NCBI RefSeq assembly: GCF_009795885.1
Contig: NZ_WTEV01000009.1
Coordinates: 1-64,000 of the forward strand
Reading direction: 5' to 3'
Source of the DNA: Gilliamella sp. Pas-s25
GTDB taxonomy: Bacteria; Pseudomonadota; Gammaproteobacteria; Enterobacterales; Orbaceae
Length of the DNA stretch: 64,000 bases
The notes under the pieces are model-generated. The model was not told the origin of the DNA and ran no database searches. It worked only from the letters and a program-made list of their open reading frames with translations. The stretch's first letter is position 1, and each line of letters starts with the position of its first letter. A program made the position numbers and the translations under genes. Positions 36,500-46,017 of this stretch are shown here, one piece after another.

Positions 36500-37343
36500 G
36501 GGGTAAGGTAAACTTATCACAACTAAAAAAAGAGCTAATATGAATAAGATTAAACGAAAAAGACGAACATTCAATGATAATTTTAAACACCAAATGGTCA
36601 GCCTTTATCAACACGGTAAATCACGTAGTGAAATCGTTGCACAATAGGATTTGACACCCGCTAAATAACGCAAGCAAGCCAAAGAGGCTCATTTAAAACA
36701 AAAGATAACCGCAGCCTACAAGAACAAGAGTTGATAGCTTTGCGCAAAGAGCTTAAACAACTTCGTATGGAAAACGACATTCTAAAGCAAGCAGCACTGA
36801 TAATAGGGCGAAAATCACTATCCTAAAAGCAAATTGTTGTCGCGAATTTAACTTATATTCGAGTTAACCAACGTTGGAATTATTTATGTGTTTTAGTGAA
36901 TTTATCCGATAGGCAGATTGTCGGTTATCATGTTGGTAAACATAAAACGGCAGAGCTTGTCATGTCGGCATTAAGCTAAATTAAACAACCATTATCGAGA
37001 TTGAATTTATTTCATTCAGACCGAGGTAAAGAGTTTGATAATCGGTTATTAGAGGATTGTTTTAAGACATTTAATATCACGCATTCATTAAGCAAGAAAG
37101 ACTGTCCTTATGACAATGCGGTAGCAGAAGCGACATTTAAAACAATTAAAACGGAGTTTGTAAAAGGCCAACGTTTCAACTCAACAACGGAGTTACAACG
37201 CGCTTTTTCGGCTTATGTCTACTGGTATAATAATAAACGATTACATTCTTCGTTAGGCTACTTGCCTCCCGTCGAATTTAAAAAACATTTACCCCTTAAT
37301 TTTTTTGTTTGAAAATGTGTTGCCATTTCGTGCACTTTACCCC
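36500..37343 (+). mobile_element. Decayed IS3-family insertion sequence
   Basis: 844-bp remnant bounded by imperfect inverted ends: GGGGTAAGGTAAAC at 36500-36513 and its counterpart GGGGTAAAGTGCAC read inward from 37343 (11/14 identical). Inside are remains of orfA and orfB in the same direction with stops and a large internal loss. It lies between the flagellar block and the I-F cas genes, on the cas6f side where the CRISPR array is commonly found in this subtype. Confidence 0.7.
36540..37312 (+). pseudogene. IS3-family transposase remnants (orfA and orfB)
   Basis: orfA begins MNKIKRKRRTFNDNFKHQMV and is stopped by TAG after about 35 codons; a helix-turn-helix of the IS3 orfA type is recognisable. 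The start of orfB is missing. The remaining part of the DDE domain starts near 36840 (NLTYIRVNQRW), is stopped by TAA at 36977, and resumes with HSDRGKEFDN and DNAVAEATFKTIKTEF, which carry the second Asp and the Glu of the DDE triad. The first Asp region is lost. Not able to encode an active transposase. Confidence 0.85.
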
Positions 37344-37425: not shown

Positions 37426-37995
37426 TTAAAAATCAGGAACTGTTGCGGTTTGGCTTAGTCCATAGCTATTAAATTTGCCTTGTACTGGCTCTAGGCATTT
37501 TTCTTGCTTTATCCACAAAATAAATTTTTGCCCTGTACTTTTACTATGCAAATGAAAGTGTGGATATTGCAAATGAACGCTTCCCCACTTTTCAATCATT
37601 TTATTTTTTACTTCAGGTGTCCATTTTCCTTGTGCTGTTAATCGTTTTTCGGCACGCTTTAATGCACTTTGACCTTTCGGATTAACACGGCTAAAACGTA
37701 AATAGCCTTTTATCGTCGTCGGTACTGTAGTGATAGGCATCGGTAAGGCATAATCACGAATTGATGATTTTTGCTGTATATCTGCTTTAAGGTTTTGCAA
37801 CTCCTGCTCGGTGCCCAATAGGCGAATCACTCCGCCTAATGTTTGGTGCACTCTGTAACAAGGAAAGCTAATTGCGATATTGCCTTGGTGATTGACCAAA
37901 ATTTGGTGTAATGATTGCATCACTTGATTCATTACATCCACTTCGGTTATCTCAATTTGCGAAATCGCTCGCAACTCTAAATAGTGTGAGTGCAT
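37426..37995 (-). CDS. cas6f: Type I-F crRNA endonuclease Cas6f (Csy4)
   Basis: Cuts the pre-crRNA 3' of the hairpin in each repeat and stays bound to the crRNA 3' end. Length is 189 aa. The catalytic His30 sits in SLHQIL, equal to His29 of Pseudomonas Csy4. A basic helix follows (SALKRAEKRLTAQGK), then the STGQKF motif and the C-terminal YGLS. Fourth gene of the leftward csy operon, 5 bp after csy3. No CRISPR array follows it; an IS remnant does. Confidence 0.94.
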   Translation of the reverse strand: MHSHYLELRAISQIEITEVDVMNQVMQSLHQILVNHQGNIAISFPCYRVHQTLGGVIRLLGTEQELQNLKADIQQKSSIRDYALPMPITTVPTTIKGYLRFSRVNPKGQSALKRAEKRLTAQGKWTPEVKNKMIEKWGSVHLQYPHFHLHSKSTGQKFILWIKQEKCLEPVQGKFNSYGLSQTATVPDF

Positions 37996-38000
37996 CTTAT

Positions 38001-39011
38001 TTACTCCTTACCGCTGGCCCCAAATACACCACCACGAATTAATACCGCAATCACATAATGTTGCTGATCAAGCGCTGGTTTTTCACCTTTTAAAACCCAA
38101 TTATCAAATAGGGTATAAAAGTCTGATTTCTGTTTTGGTTGGCGAAAAGCATGCCCCATTGAAGTAACCGAGCCATACGGTTCTATCGCTATTGGAAATT
38201 GTGCATTATCTTCATACCAAGTATCGATAGTTCGAATTGCATTACTGATTTTTTGTGAATGCATGGCGGCTTGTTGGTTCTTCTCATACAATACTTTACT
38301 TTTTGTTTTACCCGTATCTAGGATTAATTCTTGTGATGGATAGACTTCTTGACTTAAGCCCATTTTCAGTTTGGCTTCAACGTTAAAAATCACAAACTCT
38401 TTACCGGATAATCCAGCCTCAATCAGTTTGGCAAGATCATTTACCGATTTATCATCATAATCAAATACATTAAGCTGGTATTGTTTAACATCGCTGACTT
38501 CAATAAATGGTTTTTTATCATTTTTTCGAGTAACTGAAAGGCTAATGTGCTCCGCGGTCATACGATTACGCCATAACCAACGACCATTTAAGATATTAAT
38601 GGCATAACGCTTAGCCAAGTTAAGCATTCCTTGCGTTTGAATATAATCCTGCGTTGTTTTTTCTAGTTCTTTTTGATATTCAATATCATTACACACGGAA
38701 GGTTTACCTAAAAATGGTAACACTTTACAGCTCCATGTCACGACCAAAGTATCTTTATCGGCATCTAACGCAGCAACATCAACTGTTTGTAAATTTGGCT
38801 TTTGTATTTCAGCATCTAATTTGGTTGGATCGTTTGCAACTGCATTTTTAAGACGATTTGAAATAGTGCCTCGGACTGATTTTTCAGTGACTGTAACAGG
38901 AGATAATTTATTGGAATCCGTATTATCTTGCTGTGCAAAAATCGCATCAGAAATATCAAAACTACGTTCAAAAGCAAGTACGCTGGCGGTGGTGATTTTA
39001 TCTTTACTCAT
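38001..39011 (-). CDS. csy3: Type I-F Cascade backbone protein Cas7f (Csy3)
   Basis: Six copies normally coat the spacer part of the crRNA in the Csy complex. Length is 336 aa, matching the family, with N-terminal VLAFERSFDISDAIF, the VRGTISNRLK stretch and a glycine-rich C-terminal IRGGVFGASG. It lies 35 bp after csy2. Confidence 0.93.
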   Translation of the reverse strand: MSKDKITTASVLAFERSFDISDAIFAQQDNTDSNKLSPVTVTEKSVRGTISNRLKNAVANDPTKLDAEIQKPNLQTVDVAALDADKDTLVVTWSCKVLPFLGKPSVCNDIEYQKELEKTTQDYIQTQGMLNLAKRYAINILNGRWLWRNRMTAEHISLSVTRKNDKKPFIEVSDVKQYQLNVFDYDDKSVNDLAKLIEAGLSGKEFVIFNVEAKLKMGLSQEVYPSQELILDTGKTKSKVLYEKNQQAAMHSQKISNAIRTIDTWYEDNAQFPIAIEPYGSVTSMGHAFRQPKQKSDFYTLFDNWVLKGEKPALDQQHYVIAVLIRGGVFGASGKE

Positions 39012-39046: not shown

Positions 39047-39970
39047 TTAATTGGTTTCTTGATTAATAACATAAATTTCTGCATCATTAGATTGCAATTC
39101 ACTGCATTTATAACGCCAAAAAGCCTGTGATAAATTCTCTTCCAAGCGTAAAGGAAAGACCCATTTACCAAGCCCATAAATACACTCCACAAATTGCGTG
39201 GCATGCTCATTACTGCGCGCATGTTCAACCTTACCTGCTGAAAATAGTGGCGAAATAGCTTGATAGCCTAAATGTAAAGGCACAAGCCAACCGCGCCCTT
39301 GTTTAACCGATGTGGTTTGCCAGTGATCTTTTTCTTGAGGATGATGATGTGACATTGCGGTTTCAATCAAGGCATCAAGCGCTGTAGCATTAGGATCTTG
39401 TTGTTGTAATTCCGCAGTGATATCTTGCAAATCTTGTGGAGCCTCAACCAAAACAAAAGCGGGTAATAGTGCATTGATTAAGTGTTTATTTGATTTTGAT
39501 GCAGAATATAGCGCGACTGATTCAATATCAACAACCTGCCCACCAGCAACACGTTGCTGGTAAAGTTTTTGTTTCATCTGTTGGATAAATGCTTGCTGTT
39601 CATCTGCATCATCTAATGTTTCACGATCTTCAATTTTTACCTCGACAAGCAAGGAAACATCTAGATGAACTCGCCCTTCTTCAATAATTGAACGGGTACT
39701 ACCATTTTTAGCTAGTGGATTGCGTGTTAATCGAAAAGTATAATCCGCATAGTTATTAGGTCGATAAACTTGTACATTACATTCATGACATGCAATTAAC
39801 ACACCATCTAAGTAAATAGGATTTTCTGATTCAATTTTACGACTTAAAGCATGAATAGCGCCTAAAAACCCCGAAATAGCAGGGAATCCATACGTTAATG
39901 GGCTAGAAATTGCATTAGCATTATGAATTTTGACATGATCAAATAATAAATAATAACGTAATGATGCCAT
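39047..39970 (-). CDS. csy2: Type I-F Cascade protein Cas5f (Csy2)
   Basis: Binds the crRNA 5' handle together with Csy1. Length is 307 aa. N-terminal YYLLFDHVKIHNANAISSPLTYGFPAISGFLGAIHAL is the family signature, and a GRGWLVPLHLGYQAISPL block lies near 238-255. It overlaps csy1 by one base, so translation is coupled. Confidence 0.93.
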   Translation of the reverse strand: MASLRYYLLFDHVKIHNANAISSPLTYGFPAISGFLGAIHALSRKIESENPIYLDGVLIACHECNVQVYRPNNYADYTFRLTRNPLAKNGSTRSIIEEGRVHLDVSLLVEVKIEDRETLDDADEQQAFIQQMKQKLYQQRVAGGQVVDIESVALYSASKSNKHLINALLPAFVLVEAPQDLQDITAELQQQDPNATALDALIETAMSHHHPQEKDHWQTTSVKQGRGWLVPLHLGYQAISPLFSAGKVEHARSNEHATQFVECIYGLGKWVFPLRLEENLSQAFWRYKCSELQSNDAEIYVINQETN

Positions 39971-41352
39971 TAAAAGATCCCCTCCCGTTTACGTTGACTT
40001 GCTTTCACCGCAGCACTAAATTCGCGGCGCCATTCGCTAAATTCAGGATCCGCAAATTGCTGTTTAATATTTTTAAATTTTTCTTTTAAAGCATTTTGAA
40101 CCCACTTGGCAAAACTCTTTTCTAAACTTTGTTGCCAATCGCCTTGTTCATACTGCTTTTTAAAAGCATCTTCATTCTCTAATTGGGCTCGCTGTGGATC
40201 AAGCCAAAGTTTTTCATGAAAATCGAGAGAATAATCACGGCTCCAACCGGCTGGTTGAGTAGTTTGAATATGGCGAGCAAACTTAAGTAGTAATGATAAA
40301 ATCACCACAAACGCATCTTTACGATCATCTCGTTCTTCTACAATATTTTTTGGCGCTTCAACCATATCAAACAGTAATTTAAAACCAAATCGACAAAAAC
40401 CTTGTAAAGAATGATTAAAAATGGTTTCTTGCTGTTTGCCTACCATTGGAAATGGCGAGTTTTTGAATTTAGGAGGTATGGAAGGCAATAAAAAATTACG
40501 CCCCATTTGACTACCAATAAGTTGGCTTGCATTTTGAGCATTACTGCCACCGAGCCTAACAACAGCCAGCTCGTGAAAAGAAAAATAAGGTTGATGCTCA
40601 ACATCCTTTTTTCGGCGCAGTTCTCGTGCATTTTTATTTTCTTCCGAAAATCGTGTTTGTACCTTTTTATAAACTAAATGACACAAAGCACTAGGATGTA
40701 ATGGAATCAATAAACGGTAATTATGTTCTTGCTGTGATAAATAAGTTTCTTCACTATTAGGCCAGAAAAATTGCTTATTAAGTTCCGAAGCCTGCGCATC
40801 ACTCCAATTATCTCTAAGTAACTGCTGAAAATTTTCCAAATAAAGAGCAGATTTATTTTTATCATCAGATAAAGCTTCTTGAACAGCAGGGTGATTATTA
40901 ATAATAAGCTGTAAAATTGTTATATCATTTTTAACAGTTTGATTTAGTAATCCAAATATATCTAAGGATGCAGCGCTACCTGTTGCATCAAAAGGCAGGA
41001 CATTTACTGTAGAAGATGATACAAAATTACCTAAAGTATTAGGTTTTACCTGAGTATTATAATTAGCATTACAAGCCTTAGAGCTAGGGTGAATTCCCTT
41101 GGAGAGATGCGTTGCGATAAGAAGCCATGAAATACGACGAATAGCTGCATCTTCCATCCACGCTTCAAATTCAAATCGCTTGGCTAATTCATCTAATTTT
41201 TGCTGAGCTTCATTAACTGCAACTAAATCACCCACTTCTTTTGCTTTTTCTAGCTTAGCGGTTTCACTTTTATAATTACTATTATTGGCAAGTCGCTGTT
41301 GCAGAAAATCTAAAATTACTTTTCTTATATCTTGCCAAGATATGTTATCCAT
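39970..41352 (-). CDS. csy1: Type I-F Cascade large subunit Cas8f (Csy1)
   Basis: Recognises the CC PAM and, through its C-terminal helical bundle, recruits Cas2/3 once a full R-loop has formed. Length is 460 aa, usual for the family, with the HPSALCHLVYKKVQTRF block near 215 and NARELRRKKDVEHQPYFSFHELAVVRLGGSNAQNAS near 240-275. First gene of the csy operon, with GGAGGG 5 nt before the ATG, a strong ribosome-binding site. It is preceded by a 391-bp gap that holds a promoter and a crRNA-like element. Confidence 0.93.
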   Translation of the reverse strand: MDNISWQDIRKVILDFLQQRLANNSNYKSETAKLEKAKEVGDLVAVNEAQQKLDELAKRFEFEAWMEDAAIRRISWLLIATHLSKGIHPSSKACNANYNTQVKPNTLGNFVSSSTVNVLPFDATGSAASLDIFGLLNQTVKNDITILQLIINNHPAVQEALSDDKNKSALYLENFQQLLRDNWSDAQASELNKQFFWPNSEETYLSQQEHNYRLLIPLHPSALCHLVYKKVQTRFSEENKNARELRRKKDVEHQPYFSFHELAVVRLGGSNAQNASQLIGSQMGRNFLLPSIPPKFKNSPFPMVGKQQETIFNHSLQGFCRFGFKLLFDMVEAPKNIVEERDDRKDAFVVILSLLLKFARHIQTTQPAGWSRDYSLDFHEKLWLDPQRAQLENEDAFKKQYEQGDWQQSLEKSFAKWVQNALKEKFKNIKQQFADPEFSEWRREFSAAVKASQRKREGIF

Positions 41353-41390: not shown

Positions 41391-41419
41391 AGAATAAAAT
41401 AAATCAGGCTAAATATCAA
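41391..41419 (-). promoter_or_regulatory. Sigma-70 promoter of the csy operon
   Basis: On the minus strand TTGATA (41419-41414), 17 nt, TATTCT (41396-41391): 5/6 and 4/6 of consensus with ideal spacing. Predicted transcription start near 41384, 32 nt before the csy1 ATG. A weaker alternative, TTGGGT (41511-41506), 17 nt, TATCCT (41488-41483), overlaps the PAM of the guide target. Confidence 0.6.
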
Positions 41420-41453: not shown

Positions 41454-41485
41454 AAATAAAAAAAGAAAAGATAAAACTTAAAAGG
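41454..41485 (-). promoter_or_regulatory. Target site of the crRNA-like guide: CC PAM plus protospacer
   Basis: On the minus strand CC (41485-41484), the PAM of type I-F, is followed by a 30-nt stretch (41483-41454). Positions 1-8 equal the first 8 nt of the spacer-like sequence at 41604-41575, and 20 of the first 22 nt match (mismatches at 9 and 12). Position 12 is one of the every-sixth bases that do not pair in a Cascade R-loop. The PAM-distal end (23-30) mostly mismatches, which would favour binding without cleavage. It lies 35 bp upstream of the better csy promoter and on top of the -10 of the weaker one. Confidence 0.65.
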
Positions 41486-41546
41486 ATAGATATTAATTAA
41501 TATTAACCCAAAAAATTAACTAATTTAGAGAGTGGGACTTAATTTT

Positions 41547-41632
41547 TTTATAAACCGCTTATTCAGCGGTAAAATACTCTTTAAAGAAAAGAAAATACTT
41601 AAAATTTCTCAGCAACCTATACGGCTGTCCAT
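41547..41632 (-). ncRNA. Putative crRNA-like regulatory RNA (CreR-type), degenerate repeat-spacer-repeat
   Basis: On the cas-coding strand: degenerate repeat 1 (41632-41605), 30-nt spacer-like sequence (41604-41575), degenerate repeat 2 (41574-41547). Compared with the canonical I-F repeat, repeat 1 matches 21/28 and repeat 2 matches 18/28. Both keep the 5-bp Cas6f stem although its bases changed: repeat 1 has CAGCC/GGTTG (T-A became A-T, one G-U), loop GTATA; repeat 2 has CCGCT/AGCGG (T-A became C-G, C-G became T-A), loop GAATA. The closing C-G pair at the cut site is kept in both. Repeat 1 would leave the 8-nt handle CTGAGAAA, one base from CTAAGAAA. A -10-like TATACT at 41642-41637 would start the RNA near 41630, just before the first stem; an upstream TTGACA (41698-41693) is another candidate. 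It could be a dead array remnant, but the paired stem changes and the matching target argue for function. Confidence 0.7.
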
Positions 41633-41743
41633 TCAGAGTATAAAAGAATTACCTCACTTTTACTAGCAACCATTATTCACCTGACGATATTTTGTCAAAA
41701 AGTTTCAGGTAACTATGTGTTTCAGTATAAAAACAAGATTCTT

Positions 41744-44700
41744 TTATTCTTGCTTTTTATAAAATCCAAAGTAAGGATGAAAATACCAACTGTAATTACG
41801 ATATAAGTTTACGCTACAAAATTCATTCGCTAATCGATATGGCGTTTTATTTGGGAAATATTCGGCTATTTTTGCTATGGCTTGCTCGACACTATTAATT
41901 AGCCAAGGTTGGATGCTAGGATTAGCAAGTGACCAGTTTTTATATTCAATTATACTATTTTGGGTATCTTTACAGCAGTCATCTGGTGTTTGCCATGCGA
42001 TATCTGCATAGCTAAATTGGTAATTTCCATCATCGTCAAGTTGGCAAATATATTCATCTTGTGTCTCATCATTCCCTCTAAATGGTGAAATCGCCTGTAA
42101 ATGCACACAATGGTGATGAGCTAAACCTTGTTGCCAATAGCTGGTCACATAATTACTTTTACGGACATTAATCGCAAACAGATCTGCCATGACCTTATGT
42201 TCTAATTCAGCTAGCGTTAGTCCATCTTCAGGGCAAGACTTAATACGTGGAACCGCATCAATATTTACTAACTGATGCCCAGGAATTAGTTCATTTGTTT
42301 TATGGGTTTTCAGCAAGAATAATGGCTCTTCTTCAAATCCTGGTTTAGAAAAACAGGCTTGATCCGTACGATATTTAGATTCAATTGCTTTTAAATTCGA
42401 TCCTAATATGGCCACATTGGCCTTTTGTGCAATTTTTTGTGGTCGGTGACGCCATACCCGTCCAACTAACTGAATAATAGATCGCATGGATGATGGTTCT
42501 ACAATTGCCCAATCATAATCGTGATCACGCCCGACTTCGGTGACTGGCGTGCCTATCACAATAAAGATATGGTTTTCTTTATTGCTACTTTTTATCGCTT
42601 GGAGAATTTCGGGTTGGCTAAATAGTGCTTGTTCATCACTGCGATTTAAAATTCTATCGAGTTTTTCTTCTAATTGGCTACGCAATAACAGCAGTTGCCG
42701 AGCATGATAGACCACGATATGAAAAGCGGTATCATTAGGTAACTTCTTTTGTGCATAAATTTGTTGTGTAAGTGAAATAACATCTTCTATATGGGCAAAA
42801 CGCATTAAACCAATACTAACTTTTTTTTGTGATTTTTTATCTATTTGATGATGATCTTGGTGAAATTGATAAGCTTGATCTAATAGTTGCTTAGCCAGTA
42901 CACCATAATTAATTTTTTGGTTTTCTGTTTTATTTTCTTGGTAATTTAATAGATCTAAAATATGCCCTTGGCGACGGATTGCACTTTGTGCTAATTGATG
43001 AATGCGTGTTGCTACAAATTGTTGATGGTGCTCGCTAAACGTTTTAGTATCAGCAATTTGGGATATCGACTGTTGATATTCATCAAACCAGCCACATACA
43101 ATAGTATTATCGGCATATTGATTATTTTGATTCCAAATTTTTCGCCCGGCTTGGTAAGCGTCAAATAATCCGGCAATTAAATCTGGCGTTAAGGTCGCCG
43201 ATGACAGTAGTACTTTGCTCCCAAACAATCCGGCTAAATGCACTAAACGCGCTAGCGCTGGCAAATCGTGTTGATCAAAATCATCCGGCTCATCTAAAAT
43301 CAGATCTGAGGTTAACAATCTTAACGTTGGTGCAATATATTTACCGCCTCGCGTACATTCGCTCGCTTGGATAATATGGTCAATAGTGCATGTCACAATG
43401 GGCGCATAGAGTAATTGTCTTGCTTTGCTGTTTTCGATAATGGTACCTAATTCACAATCAGCAATACCACTTTCTGCTACATCAATATATTCATCAAGTA
43501 ACGATTCGATAGATTCACTACCTTGGTTTTCTGAATTTTTTGGAGAATCGTTTTGTTGTATTTCTTCATTACTTAGCTCAAACAAGGTTTTTGTGGCTCG
43601 CCCACCCACTAAAATCGCCAGATGTTCATCACTTAAGTGTAATCTTTCTCTTAATGCTTTACCTGTTTGCAACGTTAAAACACGTAATCCCAATGCAATG
43701 GTAAAACGCACGCCACGTTTAGGATTTGAAAGCGCATACATTATTCGCCCATTGGCTAAGGTTTTACCGCAGCCAGTCGATGCCATATTCACACCAAAAA
43801 AGCCACATTCATCAGACATTTGTTGATAACTTTTCGCTAAATCAAAAGCATGATTTTGCCATTGAAATCGTTTTATGGTTGTTCGTTTGGTAAAGGGTTT
43901 ATGCTGATTAATTGCGGGTAATTCAGTGATTATTTTAGGTAATAAACGAGCAAAGCGGGCTGAAAAATTAGCTACACCGATTAAATGATCATCTAAACAT
44001 TGCTTCGCTTTTTTCAGGTAATTGGTATTGGCAATTAAGATTGCTTTATGTTTTTCGGCTTCTTCATTTGCTAAAGATAAACTTGAGTAGTTATGATCAG
44101 CCACCATTAAGCTTAAACGTGAAATATGCAATAAAAACGCGTCAATATTAGACAATTGCATTAAGGGAACATGATTTAGGGCTTTGGCTGCATAACGGCT
44201 TAGTTTTTTCAGCCAAGGCTGACTTAAGGTAATATCGCTTTTAAGCTGCCAAAAATCGTTGGGTGAAGTGTGTTGACTATGACTATTTTTAACCCATTTA
44301 TCAATTGCCTTAAATGTTTTATAAAAACTTCGGATAGTTAAACCAGATATATCAAAATCTATTTTCTGTAAATTTTTAATATCCCCCGTTAATGAATCCG
44401 GTAAAAACGGCATTCTATGATGCGACACAATGAGCCACGCAATCCATTGTGCCAATAATGGTAACTGCGTAAGATCATTTTTTTCAACTTTGGTAAGCTG
44501 CTTGTACCAATTAGGATGTTGCTGTTGATATTGAGTAAAATGCGCTAATCGATTAAATAAGGCTTCGTTGGTGGTGCAGTCTTGAATCATTAATAAAAAT
44601 AATTGCAACGAAATCCATTCATGTCGATAAGGATCAGCCGCCACAGCCGTTTCTGCTCGTAATTTAGATTGAAAACCAACCGTTGCTTTGCCTAAATCAT

Positions 44701-45067
44701 GAAGTAGGGCTGCCATAGTTGTGATCAATTGAATAGCGGTTGCATATTGCCAACAATTTTCGCTGTCACTGCGTAAAATATTACGTTTAGTACGATTAGT
44801 TGGGACTCGTCCCTCTTGATTAAACTGACTACGATCGCCCACAATCCACAAAAGATCAGTTAAATTTTTACCATGTGTCCAATAACATGCAACAGCAGTA
44901 TTTTTTCGTGCAGTTTTGCGTAATAATTTATAAAGCGTTTGTAACCCAGCTTCGGTCATCGGGCTTTGCCATGTCCGTTCACCGCAGCGCTCAGCAAACT
45001 GATCGATAATCCGCCGTGTTTCGGTTAAGGCGTTCTTTTTGCATTGACTAACAAGTAAAATATTCAT
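41744..45067 (-). CDS. cas3: Type I-F Cas2-Cas3 fusion nuclease-helicase
   Basis: Degrades targeted DNA and, through its Cas2 part, joins Cas1 in the adaptation complex. Length is 1107 aa. Cas2-like domain at about 1-90 (MNILLVSQCKKNALTETRRIIDQFA), HD nuclease with His123-Asp124 (ALLHDLGKATVGFQSKL), superfamily 2 helicase with Walker A ASTGCGKT at 429-436 and the DEPDD box near 600, and a C-terminal domain. No frameshift or lost motif was seen, so the effector nuclease looks intact. Its start overlaps the cas1 stop by 4 bp. Confidence 0.95.
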   Translation of the reverse strand: MNILLVSQCKKNALTETRRIIDQFAERCGERTWQSPMTEAGLQTLYKLLRKTARKNTAVACYWTHGKNLTDLLWIVGDRSQFNQEGRVPTNRTKRNILRSDSENCWQYATAIQLITTMAALLHDLGKATVGFQSKLRAETAVAADPYRHEWISLQLFLLMIQDCTTNEALFNRLAHFTQYQQQHPNWYKQLTKVEKNDLTQLPLLAQWIAWLIVSHHRMPFLPDSLTGDIKNLQKIDFDISGLTIRSFYKTFKAIDKWVKNSHSQHTSPNDFWQLKSDITLSQPWLKKLSRYAAKALNHVPLMQLSNIDAFLLHISRLSLMVADHNYSSLSLANEEAEKHKAILIANTNYLKKAKQCLDDHLIGVANFSARFARLLPKIITELPAINQHKPFTKRTTIKRFQWQNHAFDLAKSYQQMSDECGFFGVNMASTGCGKTLANGRIMYALSNPKRGVRFTIALGLRVLTLQTGKALRERLHLSDEHLAILVGGRATKTLFELSNEEIQQNDSPKNSENQGSESIESLLDEYIDVAESGIADCELGTIIENSKARQLLYAPIVTCTIDHIIQASECTRGGKYIAPTLRLLTSDLILDEPDDFDQHDLPALARLVHLAGLFGSKVLLSSATLTPDLIAGLFDAYQAGRKIWNQNNQYADNTIVCGWFDEYQQSISQIADTKTFSEHHQQFVATRIHQLAQSAIRRQGHILDLLNYQENKTENQKINYGVLAKQLLDQAYQFHQDHHQIDKKSQKKVSIGLMRFAHIEDVISLTQQIYAQKKLPNDTAFHIVVYHARQLLLLRSQLEEKLDRILNRSDEQALFSQPEILQAIKSSNKENHIFIVIGTPVTEVGRDHDYDWAIVEPSSMRSIIQLVGRVWRHRPQKIAQKANVAILGSNLKAIESKYRTDQACFSKPGFEEEPLFLLKTHKTNELIPGHQLVNIDAVPRIKSCPEDGLTLAELEHKVMADLFAINVRKSNYVTSYWQQGLAHHHCVHLQAISPFRGNDETQDEYICQLDDDGNYQFSYADIAWQTPDDCCKDTQNSIIEYKNWSLANPSIQPWLINSVEQAIAKIAEYFPNKTPYRLANEFCSVNLYRNYSWYFHPYFGFYKKQE

Positions 45068-46017
45068 ATTTGAGCTGCTATCTGTTTTAAAGTATCAATA
45101 ATCCTATCAAGTGCACCTAATTGGGCAAATTGCGCAATACATGCCATACGAAATTCTTTTTCACTGTCGCCTTGTTTGGCTGATAAAAAAGCTTGAGGTA
45201 ATACAATGCCATCTTTAATAATATCTGCCGCATCAAAAACTAAGCCACCACGCCTAGTTTTTCCGTGTAAAATAGCCAGCCCATGTGGTAAACCTAATAC
45301 CCAACAAGCCGTTGCGCCAAGGCCATAGGCTAAATAGTTACCATGATCTAAAAATTGATTAGCGGGATCATGACTTTTGCCTCGTGTGCCTTGTTCTCGT
45401 TTAAATTTGTCATCTTGTAAGGTTAATTGATTTGCCATTCCATAAAGACGTTTGCTAATTCGCCCTTCTGCAGCTAAAAGTGCTTGGCTGTTATCAACAT
45501 CGGTAAATTGTTGTGTTGCATCAGTAAGAATATGCGCTAACTGCGTTTTATCAACATCCCAATCAAATTGTGGCCAACATTCACTAATAATATTAAGCCG
45601 TGTTTGTTGCAATAATTTAGCTGCTTGTAATCGACGTTTGTCATCAAACCAAAATTGACACCAACTTTGTAGGTATTGTGTCGGACGATATTCACTTTGT
45701 GGTGAAAAAAACTGACAGGCAAATTCAGATTCGGTTGATGAAAATAGAGGCGTTCCGCCTCCGCCACAAAAGCCAATCATAACGCCTGCCCGTGAAAGCT
45801 CTCGCACTGCCGCTTGCGTTAATGATGTTCCCGTGCCTAATAAAATACAGGTGGTATTTGCTATTGGGATATTCCAATATAACGACTGCTGACCTTGCTC
45901 GGTCACATACTCGACTCGCCCGCCATTAACCAAAACACGGCAATGCTCTAAATAATAAATATTGGCTCGCTTGGAATGCATGATCGTTTTTAGATCAGAA
46001 GAATGAATCATATCCAT
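45064..46017 (-). CDS. cas1: Type I-F CRISPR integrase Cas1
   Basis: Integrates new spacers together with the Cas2 part of Cas2-3. Length is 317 aa. Putative metal ligands are Glu184 (LLAAEGRISKRLYG), a His in GLPHGLAILHG (245 or 251) and an Asp in GLVFDAADIIKD (262 or 265). First gene of the cas1-cas2-3 unit, with a 165-bp gap to the carB end that should contain its promoter. Confidence 0.95.
   Translation of the reverse strand: MDMIHSSDLKTIMHSKRANIYYLEHCRVLVNGGRVEYVTEQGQQSLYWNIPIANTTCILLGTGTSLTQAAVRELSRAGVMIGFCGGGGTPLFSSTESEFACQFFSPQSEYRPTQYLQSWCQFWFDDKRRLQAAKLLQQTRLNIISECWPQFDWDVDKTQLAHILTDATQQFTDVDNSQALLAAEGRISKRLYGMANQLTLQDDKFKREQGTRGKSHDPANQFLDHGNYLAYGLGATACWVLGLPHGLAILHGKTRRGGLVFDAADIIKDGIVLPQAFLSAKQGDSEKEFRMACIAQFAQLGALDRIIDTLKQIAAQI

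What the first reader, a model, noticed from the sequence alone, without database searches (positions are those of the whole stretch)
41454..41632. Crypic crRNA-like guide between cas3 and csy1 that matches its own operon's upstream region (type I-F CreR-like autoregulation)
Seen: two degenerate I-F repeats (41632-41605, 21/28; 41574-41547, 18/28) flank a 30-nt spacer-like sequence on the cas strand. Stem base pairs changed together in both repeats, so each still folds into the 5-bp hairpin with the closing C-G pair. The spacer starts TTTTAAGT. The same strand carries CC-TTTTAAGT at 41485-41476, and 20 of the first 22 spacer positions match there (mismatches 9 and 12). Known: I-F uses a CC PAM, the seed is about positions 1-8, every sixth base is unpaired in Cascade (which excuses position 12), Cas6f needs the hairpin, and incomplete R-loops bind without recruiting Cas2/3. 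CreR in type I-B and tracr-L with Cas9 are precedents for crRNA-like autorepression. Inferred: the Csy complex loaded with this RNA would bind upstream of csy1 and limit csy expression, and relief would follow when Csy proteins are used up or blocked by anti-CRISPRs.
Basis: partly seen in the sequence, partly recalled or inferred. Interest (0 to 1): 0.95.

Follow-up and report, generated by a model that had tools for sequence, protein, structure and literature searches.

The report
Self-regulating guide RNA in CRISPR operon
A tiny decayed CRISPR unit inside a bee-gut bacterium's CRISPR operon appears to make a guide RNA aimed at the DNA just upstream of its own defence genes, a self-control trick already known from other CRISPR systems and here backed by matching changes across related bacteria.

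Summary
The cas3-csy1 gap of this Gilliamella-like type I-F locus holds two degenerate repeats around a 30-nt spacer. The same strand carries CC plus a 20/22 match (mismatches 9 and 12). Dinucleotide shuffles never reached the repeats (0 of 5000) or the CC-adjacent 18/20 match (0 of 5000). The target is the only such site in the 2.8-Mb genome besides the spacer itself.
The relatives' test was run on 23 csy1 loci of the family; 19 carry the mini-array. Their spacers differ, yet positions 1-5, 7 and 8 match the local target in 19 of 19, and 21 of 28 mismatches in positions 1-13 fall on 6 and 12, bases a Csy complex leaves unpaired. Hairpin pairs change together. This is strong evidence for a crRNA-like guide.
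Repression of csy1 is likely but not shown. In 12 of 19 loci the top promoter call has its -35 within the target; in the window it lies 32 bp beyond. In 14 of 19 loci a small undescribed HTH-like gene sits between target and csy1.
The kind is known: CreR, regulatory mini-arrays, and I-F CreTA in the same gap of Acinetobacter.

The parts
41637..41642 (-). TATACT, probable -10 box of the mini-array's own promoter, 4 nt before R1
   Evidence: TATACT in 18 of the 19 rows of the upstream alignment, TATAAT in the other, L027; no good -35 box seen in the window; inferred
41605..41632 (-). R1: degenerate type I-F repeat; 5-bp hairpin 41627-41613 and 5' handle CTGAGAAA 41612-41605
   Evidence: 0 of 5000 shuffles, both repeats together; stem pairs in 15 of 15 distinct rows with changes on both sides
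41575..41604 (-). 30-nt guide (spacer-like) sequence
41547..41574 (-). R2: second degenerate repeat; hairpin 41569-41555
   Evidence: Rfam CRISPR-DR4 E 0.0023, below gathering score
41484..41485 (-). CC PAM of the target
   Evidence: CC in 17 of 19 loci, CT in 2
41462..41483 (-). matched part of the protospacer, 20 of 22 positions (mismatches 9 and 12); the 30-nt frame ends at 41454
41391..41419 (-). candidate csy1 promoter TTGATA-17-TATTCT
   Evidence: number of sites not above the shuffle level; aligned in the 4 window-clade loci as TTGATA or TTGATT with TATTCT
39970..41352 (-). csy1/cas8f, the gene downstream of the target
   Evidence: PADLOC Cas8f E 3.3e-100
39047..39970 (-). csy2/cas5f
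38001..39011 (-). csy3/cas7f
37426..37995 (-). csy4/cas6f, the presumed processing enzyme
41744..45067 (-). cas2-3 (Cas3f), upstream of the gap
45064..46017 (-). cas1f

Best explanation
The element is a CreR-like regulatory mini-array. It is transcribed from its own promoter, probably cut by Cas6f at R1 to leave the CTGAGAAA handle and held at the R2 hairpin, and loaded into the Csy complex. The complex binds CC-TTTTAAGT... upstream of csy1 through an R-loop that stops near position 22. Such a truncated R-loop does not trigger Cas2/3, so the site is occupied and not cut, and transcription of csy1-csy4 is lowered when free Csy is plentiful. Shown here: the anatomy, the non-chance match, and the co-evolution of guide and target with Cascade-type spacing of mismatches.
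For: 0 of 5000 shuffles for the repeats and for the CC match; unique site in the genome. 19 of 23 csy1 loci of the family hold the same unit; 17 of 19 pass their own shuffle test with a CC PAM at p <= 0.009 (1000 shuffles each, 5000 for the window). The other two have CT, a PAM accepted by a studied I-F1 Cascade (PMC7296934, abstract and Discussion part 1), and with C or CT allowed they give 3 of 2000 (L019) and 0 of 2000 (L026). Positions 1-5, 7, 8: 0 mismatches in 19; position 6: 7; position 12: 14; 21 of 28 mismatches in positions 1-13 fall on 6 or 12, none of 20000 permutations as high; still none after dropping L019 and L032 (17 of 24) or using their top-scoring site (19 of 30). Seeds differ between lineages and change on both sides, e.g. 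TTTTAAGT/TTTTAAGT in L010 and L013 against TGTTAAGT/TGTTAAGT in L011 and L012. R1 stem: U-A to A-U in 4 rows, C-G to U-A in 5, all paired. In 12 of 19 loci the top-scoring promoter has its -35 box at protospacer positions 16-32. Five loci without any gene between target and csy1 keep guide and target. Truncated I-F1 R-loops bind but do not trigger Cas2/3 (PMC7296934).
Against: No expression data. In the window the best predicted -35 (41419) lies 32 bp past a 32-bp protospacer, and it is similarly placed in L012 and L013 (in L011 it ranks second, behind one that overlaps the target), so a simple -35 block is not evident in this clade. The promoter scan gives no more sites than shuffles (2 against mean 2.6). 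In 14 of 19 loci the first gene after the target is a small cassette gene, not csy1 (13; L017), so the main regulated gene may be that one; the guide is present in 14 of 14 testable cassette loci but in only 5 of 8 loci without cassette. R1 is not recognised by Rfam. Some covariation measures are not above shuffles: pairs with a two-sided change (360/500 and 272/500 shuffles reach it) and further pair types (492/500 and 500/500). Targets were chosen as best matches, which favours the own pair in the swap test.
Confidence: 0.75

Rival explanations
1. CreTA/CrePA-like addiction module: the mini-array is the antitoxin guide and represses a toxin RNA or protein encoded in the gap; cas control is secondary.
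For: The published I-F CreTA of Acinetobacter sits in the same cas3-csy1 gap of about 400 bp, with a CC-flanked target and mismatches 6, 11, 18 (PMC10097628, section 6, Discussion and passages). In 14 of 19 relatives with the guide a ~107-aa gene lies between target and csy1. All 14 testable cassette loci have the guide, against 5 of 8 loci without it. In the window an antisense TTG-started ORF of 14 codons with an SD-like motif overlaps the csy1 start; similar ones exist in L011 and L013.
Against: The window gap has no such gene. The antisense ORFs overlap the csy1 start and its Shine-Dalgarno region, which by itself explains their similarity; L012 has none with such a motif. The cassette protein looks like a winged HTH (weak matches), and 4 of 4 versions tested have no Pfam match above cut-off, KilA-N included.
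Confidence: 0.16
2. Relic of an ordinary array: a self-derived spacer caught once and now decaying, without function.
For: Repeats are degenerate (18-22 of 28) and the spacer is 30 nt, not 32. Three of 23 loci have no mini-array by the scan.
Against: Guide-target pairing is kept in 19 of 19 mini-arrays while the sequences drift, hairpins co-vary, and the mismatch period fits Cascade.
Confidence: 0.05
3. Chance match in T-rich DNA.
For: The gap is AT-rich by eye; the second-best site, without CC, still matches 14 of 20.
Against: 0 of 5000 shuffles; unique in 2.8 Mb; repeated in relatives.
Confidence: 0.01

Closest known systems
CreR, cas-regulating RNAs of types I-B, I-E and V-A (Liu 2023, Cell Host Microbe; not held; seen in passages of PMC13131331 and PMC12737573)
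   Same: degenerate mini-array, guide partly complementary to the cas promoter region
   Different: type I-F1; repression not measured here; in many relatives a small gene lies between target and cas8f
Regulatory mini-arrays, including one tested in type I-F1 (Shmakov 2023, NAR gkad495; title and authors seen in reference lists, content recalled)
   Same: two repeat-like units around one spacer, target in the promoter region of cas8
   Different: this lineage may or may not be in their tables; could not be checked because the paper is not held
Type I-F CreTA of Acinetobacter (PMC10097628; section 6, Discussion and passages read)
   Same: same cas3-csy1 gap, same guide layout, CC PAM, mismatches at 6, 11 and 18
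   Different: there the guide represses a divergent RNA toxin with a 33-bp mini-ORF; no convincing counterpart was found here
tracr-L of type II-A (Workman 2021; seen as a reference in PMC10651486; name tracr-L from the finding)
   Same: RNA-guided autorepression of cas genes
   Different: Cas9 and a tracrRNA form, unrelated parts (recalled)

Membership tests
CreR / regulatory mini-array | two degenerate repeats around a spacer, outside a canonical array, in the cas locus | tested here: met
   19 of 23 loci of the family
CreR / regulatory mini-array | PAM-flanked partial complementarity upstream of a cas gene | tested here: met
CreR / regulatory mini-array | target overlaps the cas promoter | tested here: inconclusive
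   12 of 19 loci by prediction (in most of these the promoter is first that of the cassette gene), but not clearly in the window clade
CreR / regulatory mini-array | RNA made and processed; effector-dependent repression of cas | not testable with these tools
   needs RNA-seq and a reporter
CreTA (type I-F) | toxin gene or toxin RNA controlled by the target | tested here: inconclusive
   only antisense TTG ORFs over the csy1 start carry an SD-like motif, in 3 of 4 window-clade loci; an RNA toxin cannot be excluded
CrePA | protein toxin, typically with a KilA-N domain, behind the target | tested here: not met
   no ORF of 80 codons or more in the window gap and only short ones; 4 cassette proteins of relatives have no Pfam match above cut-off
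Canonical CRISPR array | near-identical repeats with several 32-nt spacers | tested here: not met
   repeats 18-22 of 28 to the genome's own and the consensus, one 30-nt spacer

The most novel reading that the evidence does not exclude
In this family the Csy complex, led by the mini-array, controls a lineage-specific small winged-helix protein gene placed between the target and csy1, with a terminator-like hairpin before csy1: a three-part circuit of guide RNA, Csy and a DNA-binding protein. The window shows the stripped form, in which the target acts on csy1 directly.
Probability: 0.35. Interest if true: 0.62.

Novelty: new member of a known kind. Interest (0 to 1): 0.45.

Why it matters
It extends guide-RNA autoregulation to the I-F systems of bee-gut bacteria and gives, from sequence alone, a natural record of which guide positions a type I-F complex needs: 1-5, 7 and 8 never vary from the target in 19 loci, 9-11 rarely, while 6 and 12 drift. 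It also points to an undescribed small gene under the same control. If repression is confirmed, infection or anti-CRISPRs that remove free Csy would raise csy expression.

Tried and rejected
Chance and relic readings: rejected by shuffles and by the relatives. A sense toxin ORF with a Shine-Dalgarno motif in the window gap: none seen; antisense TTG ORFs over the csy1 start remain. R2 as a terminator in the window: the scan finds none, although many relatives have T-runs after the R2 hairpin (by eye). Clear promoter at the window target: not established (the scoring matrix was written by me from general knowledge of sigma-70 boxes). Remnants of the cassette gene in the window clade: only the Shine-Dalgarno region and short AT runs matched; L030 appears to keep the cassette's end. 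Family searches for the cassette protein: 4 versions, no Pfam match above cut-off; 3 versions, no PHROGs match below E 0.018; one version, no match in phage records and none in the window's own genome, where the tool warns that an empty answer alone shows little. Fold search: no match with E <= 0.001 in either library; the top PDB rows include several MerR-type proteins, best E 0.15. Loci of other families (L033-L039) were only read by eye, apart from an automatic repeat scan on one strand.

Full report
Setting. The window lies in a Gilliamella-like genome (nearest named csy1: Gilliamella mensalis, 97% identity; family name Orbaceae recalled). The type I-F cas genes are on the minus strand: cas1, cas2-3, a 391-nt gap, csy1-csy2-csy3-csy4. 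No repeat within 3 mismatches of the consensus is in the window; arrays with the repeats GTTCACTGCCGTGTAGGCAGTTTAGAAA, GTTCACCGCCGTGTAGGCGGTTTAGAAA and GTTCACCGCCGAGTAGGCGGTTTAGAAA lie on contigs C45, C6 and C67.

The observation. The two repeats are the best two 28-mers of the gap against own or consensus repeats (22 and 21 of 28), not reached in 5000 dinucleotide shuffles. The CC-adjacent match of 18/20 was not reached in 5000 shuffles of the 205-nt stretch after R2. By the stricter run-from-PAM measure p is 0.0048, because position 9 breaks the run. In the whole genome, up to 3 mismatches, only the target and the spacer itself match; the reversed control gives 0. The RNA folded alone shows both hairpins but is not unusually stable (z -1.74).

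Relatives. A csy1 search of 198 genomes found 41 with a match; the 23 in the window's family were examined at the upstream gap. A mini-array is present in 19. None was found in L014 and L031; L029 has an ordinary array at that place; L028 is cut by the contig end. The scan needed AGAAA after a hairpin, so more decayed units could be missed.

Guide and target. For each of the 19 the best match downstream was taken. Two exceptions: for L019 a CT-flanked site was used that ties with a site without such a PAM, and for L032 a CC-flanked site one match short of a TC-flanked one. PAM: CC 17, CT 2. Mismatches by position, n = 19: 1-5, 7, 8 none; 6: 7; 9, 10, 11: 2 each; 12: 14; 13: 1; 14: 5; 15: 6; 16: 6; 17: 2; 18: 9. 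In positions 1-13, 21 of 28 mismatches are at 6 or 12; no permutation of 20000 reached that. Without L019 and L032 it is 17 of 24, with their top-scoring sites 19 of 30, again 0 of 20000. This is the pattern expected if every sixth guide base is flipped out in the complex (established for Cascade; recalled). Own pairs match at 259 of 285 compared positions against a mean of 143 and maximum of 204 for spacers swapped between loci; targets had been chosen as best for their own spacer, which biases this last test. Shuffles for each locus: 17 of 19 at p <= 0.009 with CC; L019 0.085 and L026 0.985, the two whose target has CT. With C at -1 or CT allowed, these give 3 and 0 of 2000. A studied I-F1 Cascade accepts a C at -1 or CT (PMC7296934, abstract and Discussion part 1).

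Hairpins. On the 15 distinct R1 rows (4 identical ones dropped) all 75 cells pair, with two-sided changes in 9 cells (shuffles mean 2.8, 0 of 500 as high). On the 15 distinct R2 rows (4 dropped) all 90 cells pair, with 3 such cells (0 of 500). The numbers of pairs with a two-sided change and of further pair types are not above shuffles. Rows are related, so these are not independent events.

Mechanism. The match in the window stops at position 22, with 23-26 unpaired. In the I-F1 system studied in PMC7296934, R-loops shortened by 6 bp bind but do not trigger Cas2/3. That gives a binding-only guide. Where the complex sits relative to the promoter differs: in 12 of 19 loci the top-scoring promoter has its -35 at protospacer positions 16-32, a direct block. 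In the window the best promoter TTGATA-17-TATTCT begins 64 bp after the protospacer start, so the block would be indirect or would act on another promoter or on read-through from cas2-3; in L011 a weak promoter overlapping the target scores best. The scan of the gap is not above chance. I therefore hold guide-directed binding as very likely and repression of csy1 as likely.

The cassette. In 14 of the 19 mini-array loci, and in L028, a ~107-aa gene lies between target and csy1 (14 loci, among them L028; L017), with a terminator-like hairpin in the roughly 70 nt before csy1 (by eye). It was found in 14 of 394 genomes of the order, in 2 genera; in all 14 the match ends 71-82 nt before a csy1 match. 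A six-row model has a confident C-terminal half (pLDDT 91-94 in residues 51-100; whole model 72.5) with helix-helix-hairpin-helix order; the best PDB matches include MerR-type proteins but none is significant (E 0.15 or worse). It may be a DNA-binding regulator. Of 8 loci without it, 5 have guide and target (L010-L013, L030) and 3 have no mini-array (L014, L029, L031). L030 appears to have lost the gene while keeping its end and the guide-target pair. That argues that cas control alone can keep the guide, though the guide is more constant where the cassette is present.

What is known. CreR is described for types I-B, I-E and V-A (PMC13131331, passages; PMC12737573, passages; original not held). 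An I-F CreA in the cas3-csy1 gap of Acinetobacter represses an RNA toxin, with CC PAM and mismatches 6, 11, 18; single-base tests there show positions 2-5, 7-9 and 13-17 needed, 1 partly, and 10, 12, 19, 20 not (PMC10097628, passages). This agrees well with the natural pattern here, except that positions 14-16 vary more here. Shmakov 2023 reports regulatory mini-arrays, one tested in I-F1 (recalled; not held). Searches for papers joining Gilliamella with CRISPR and Cas (15 of 38 listed), or two of Gilliamella, mini-CRISPR and csy1 or cas8f promoter terms (only PMC10097628), listed none whose title or start of abstract describes this element in Gilliamella; supplements were not searched.

Noticed in passing
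L015-L028, L032 upstream of csy1 (e.g. L019:1104-1427): A ~107-aa gene, found in 2 genera of this family only among 394 genomes of the order, sits between the guide's target and csy1 in 15 of 23 loci; predicted winged-helix C-terminal half, no family match above cut-off in those tested.
   Followed up: partly
L015 and L018, about 795-960 of the reoriented locus: A second, more decayed repeat-spacer unit and a second CC-flanked partial match lie downstream of the first, like a duplicated module in decay (by eye).
   Followed up: no
L025 (targets at 906 and 940) and L021 (907 and 953), reoriented: Two CC-flanked sites match the same guide, 15 and 17 of 20 in each locus.
   Followed up: partly
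L026, 737-870 reoriented: The mini-array has an additional upstream repeat and spacer, making it three repeats long; the regulatory guide is the last one.
   Followed up: no
L032 (G006): csy1 is split into two adjacent matches (residues 1-299 and 298-460), apparently broken, while guide and target are intact.
   Followed up: no
L037 and L038, gap before csy1: In two genomes of other families the gap shows repeat-like hairpins in the opposite orientation; read by eye only.
   Followed up: no
window 36540-37320: Transposase-like fragments (one 103-aa ORF, not searched against families) follow csy4, where an array is often found (recalled).
   Followed up: no
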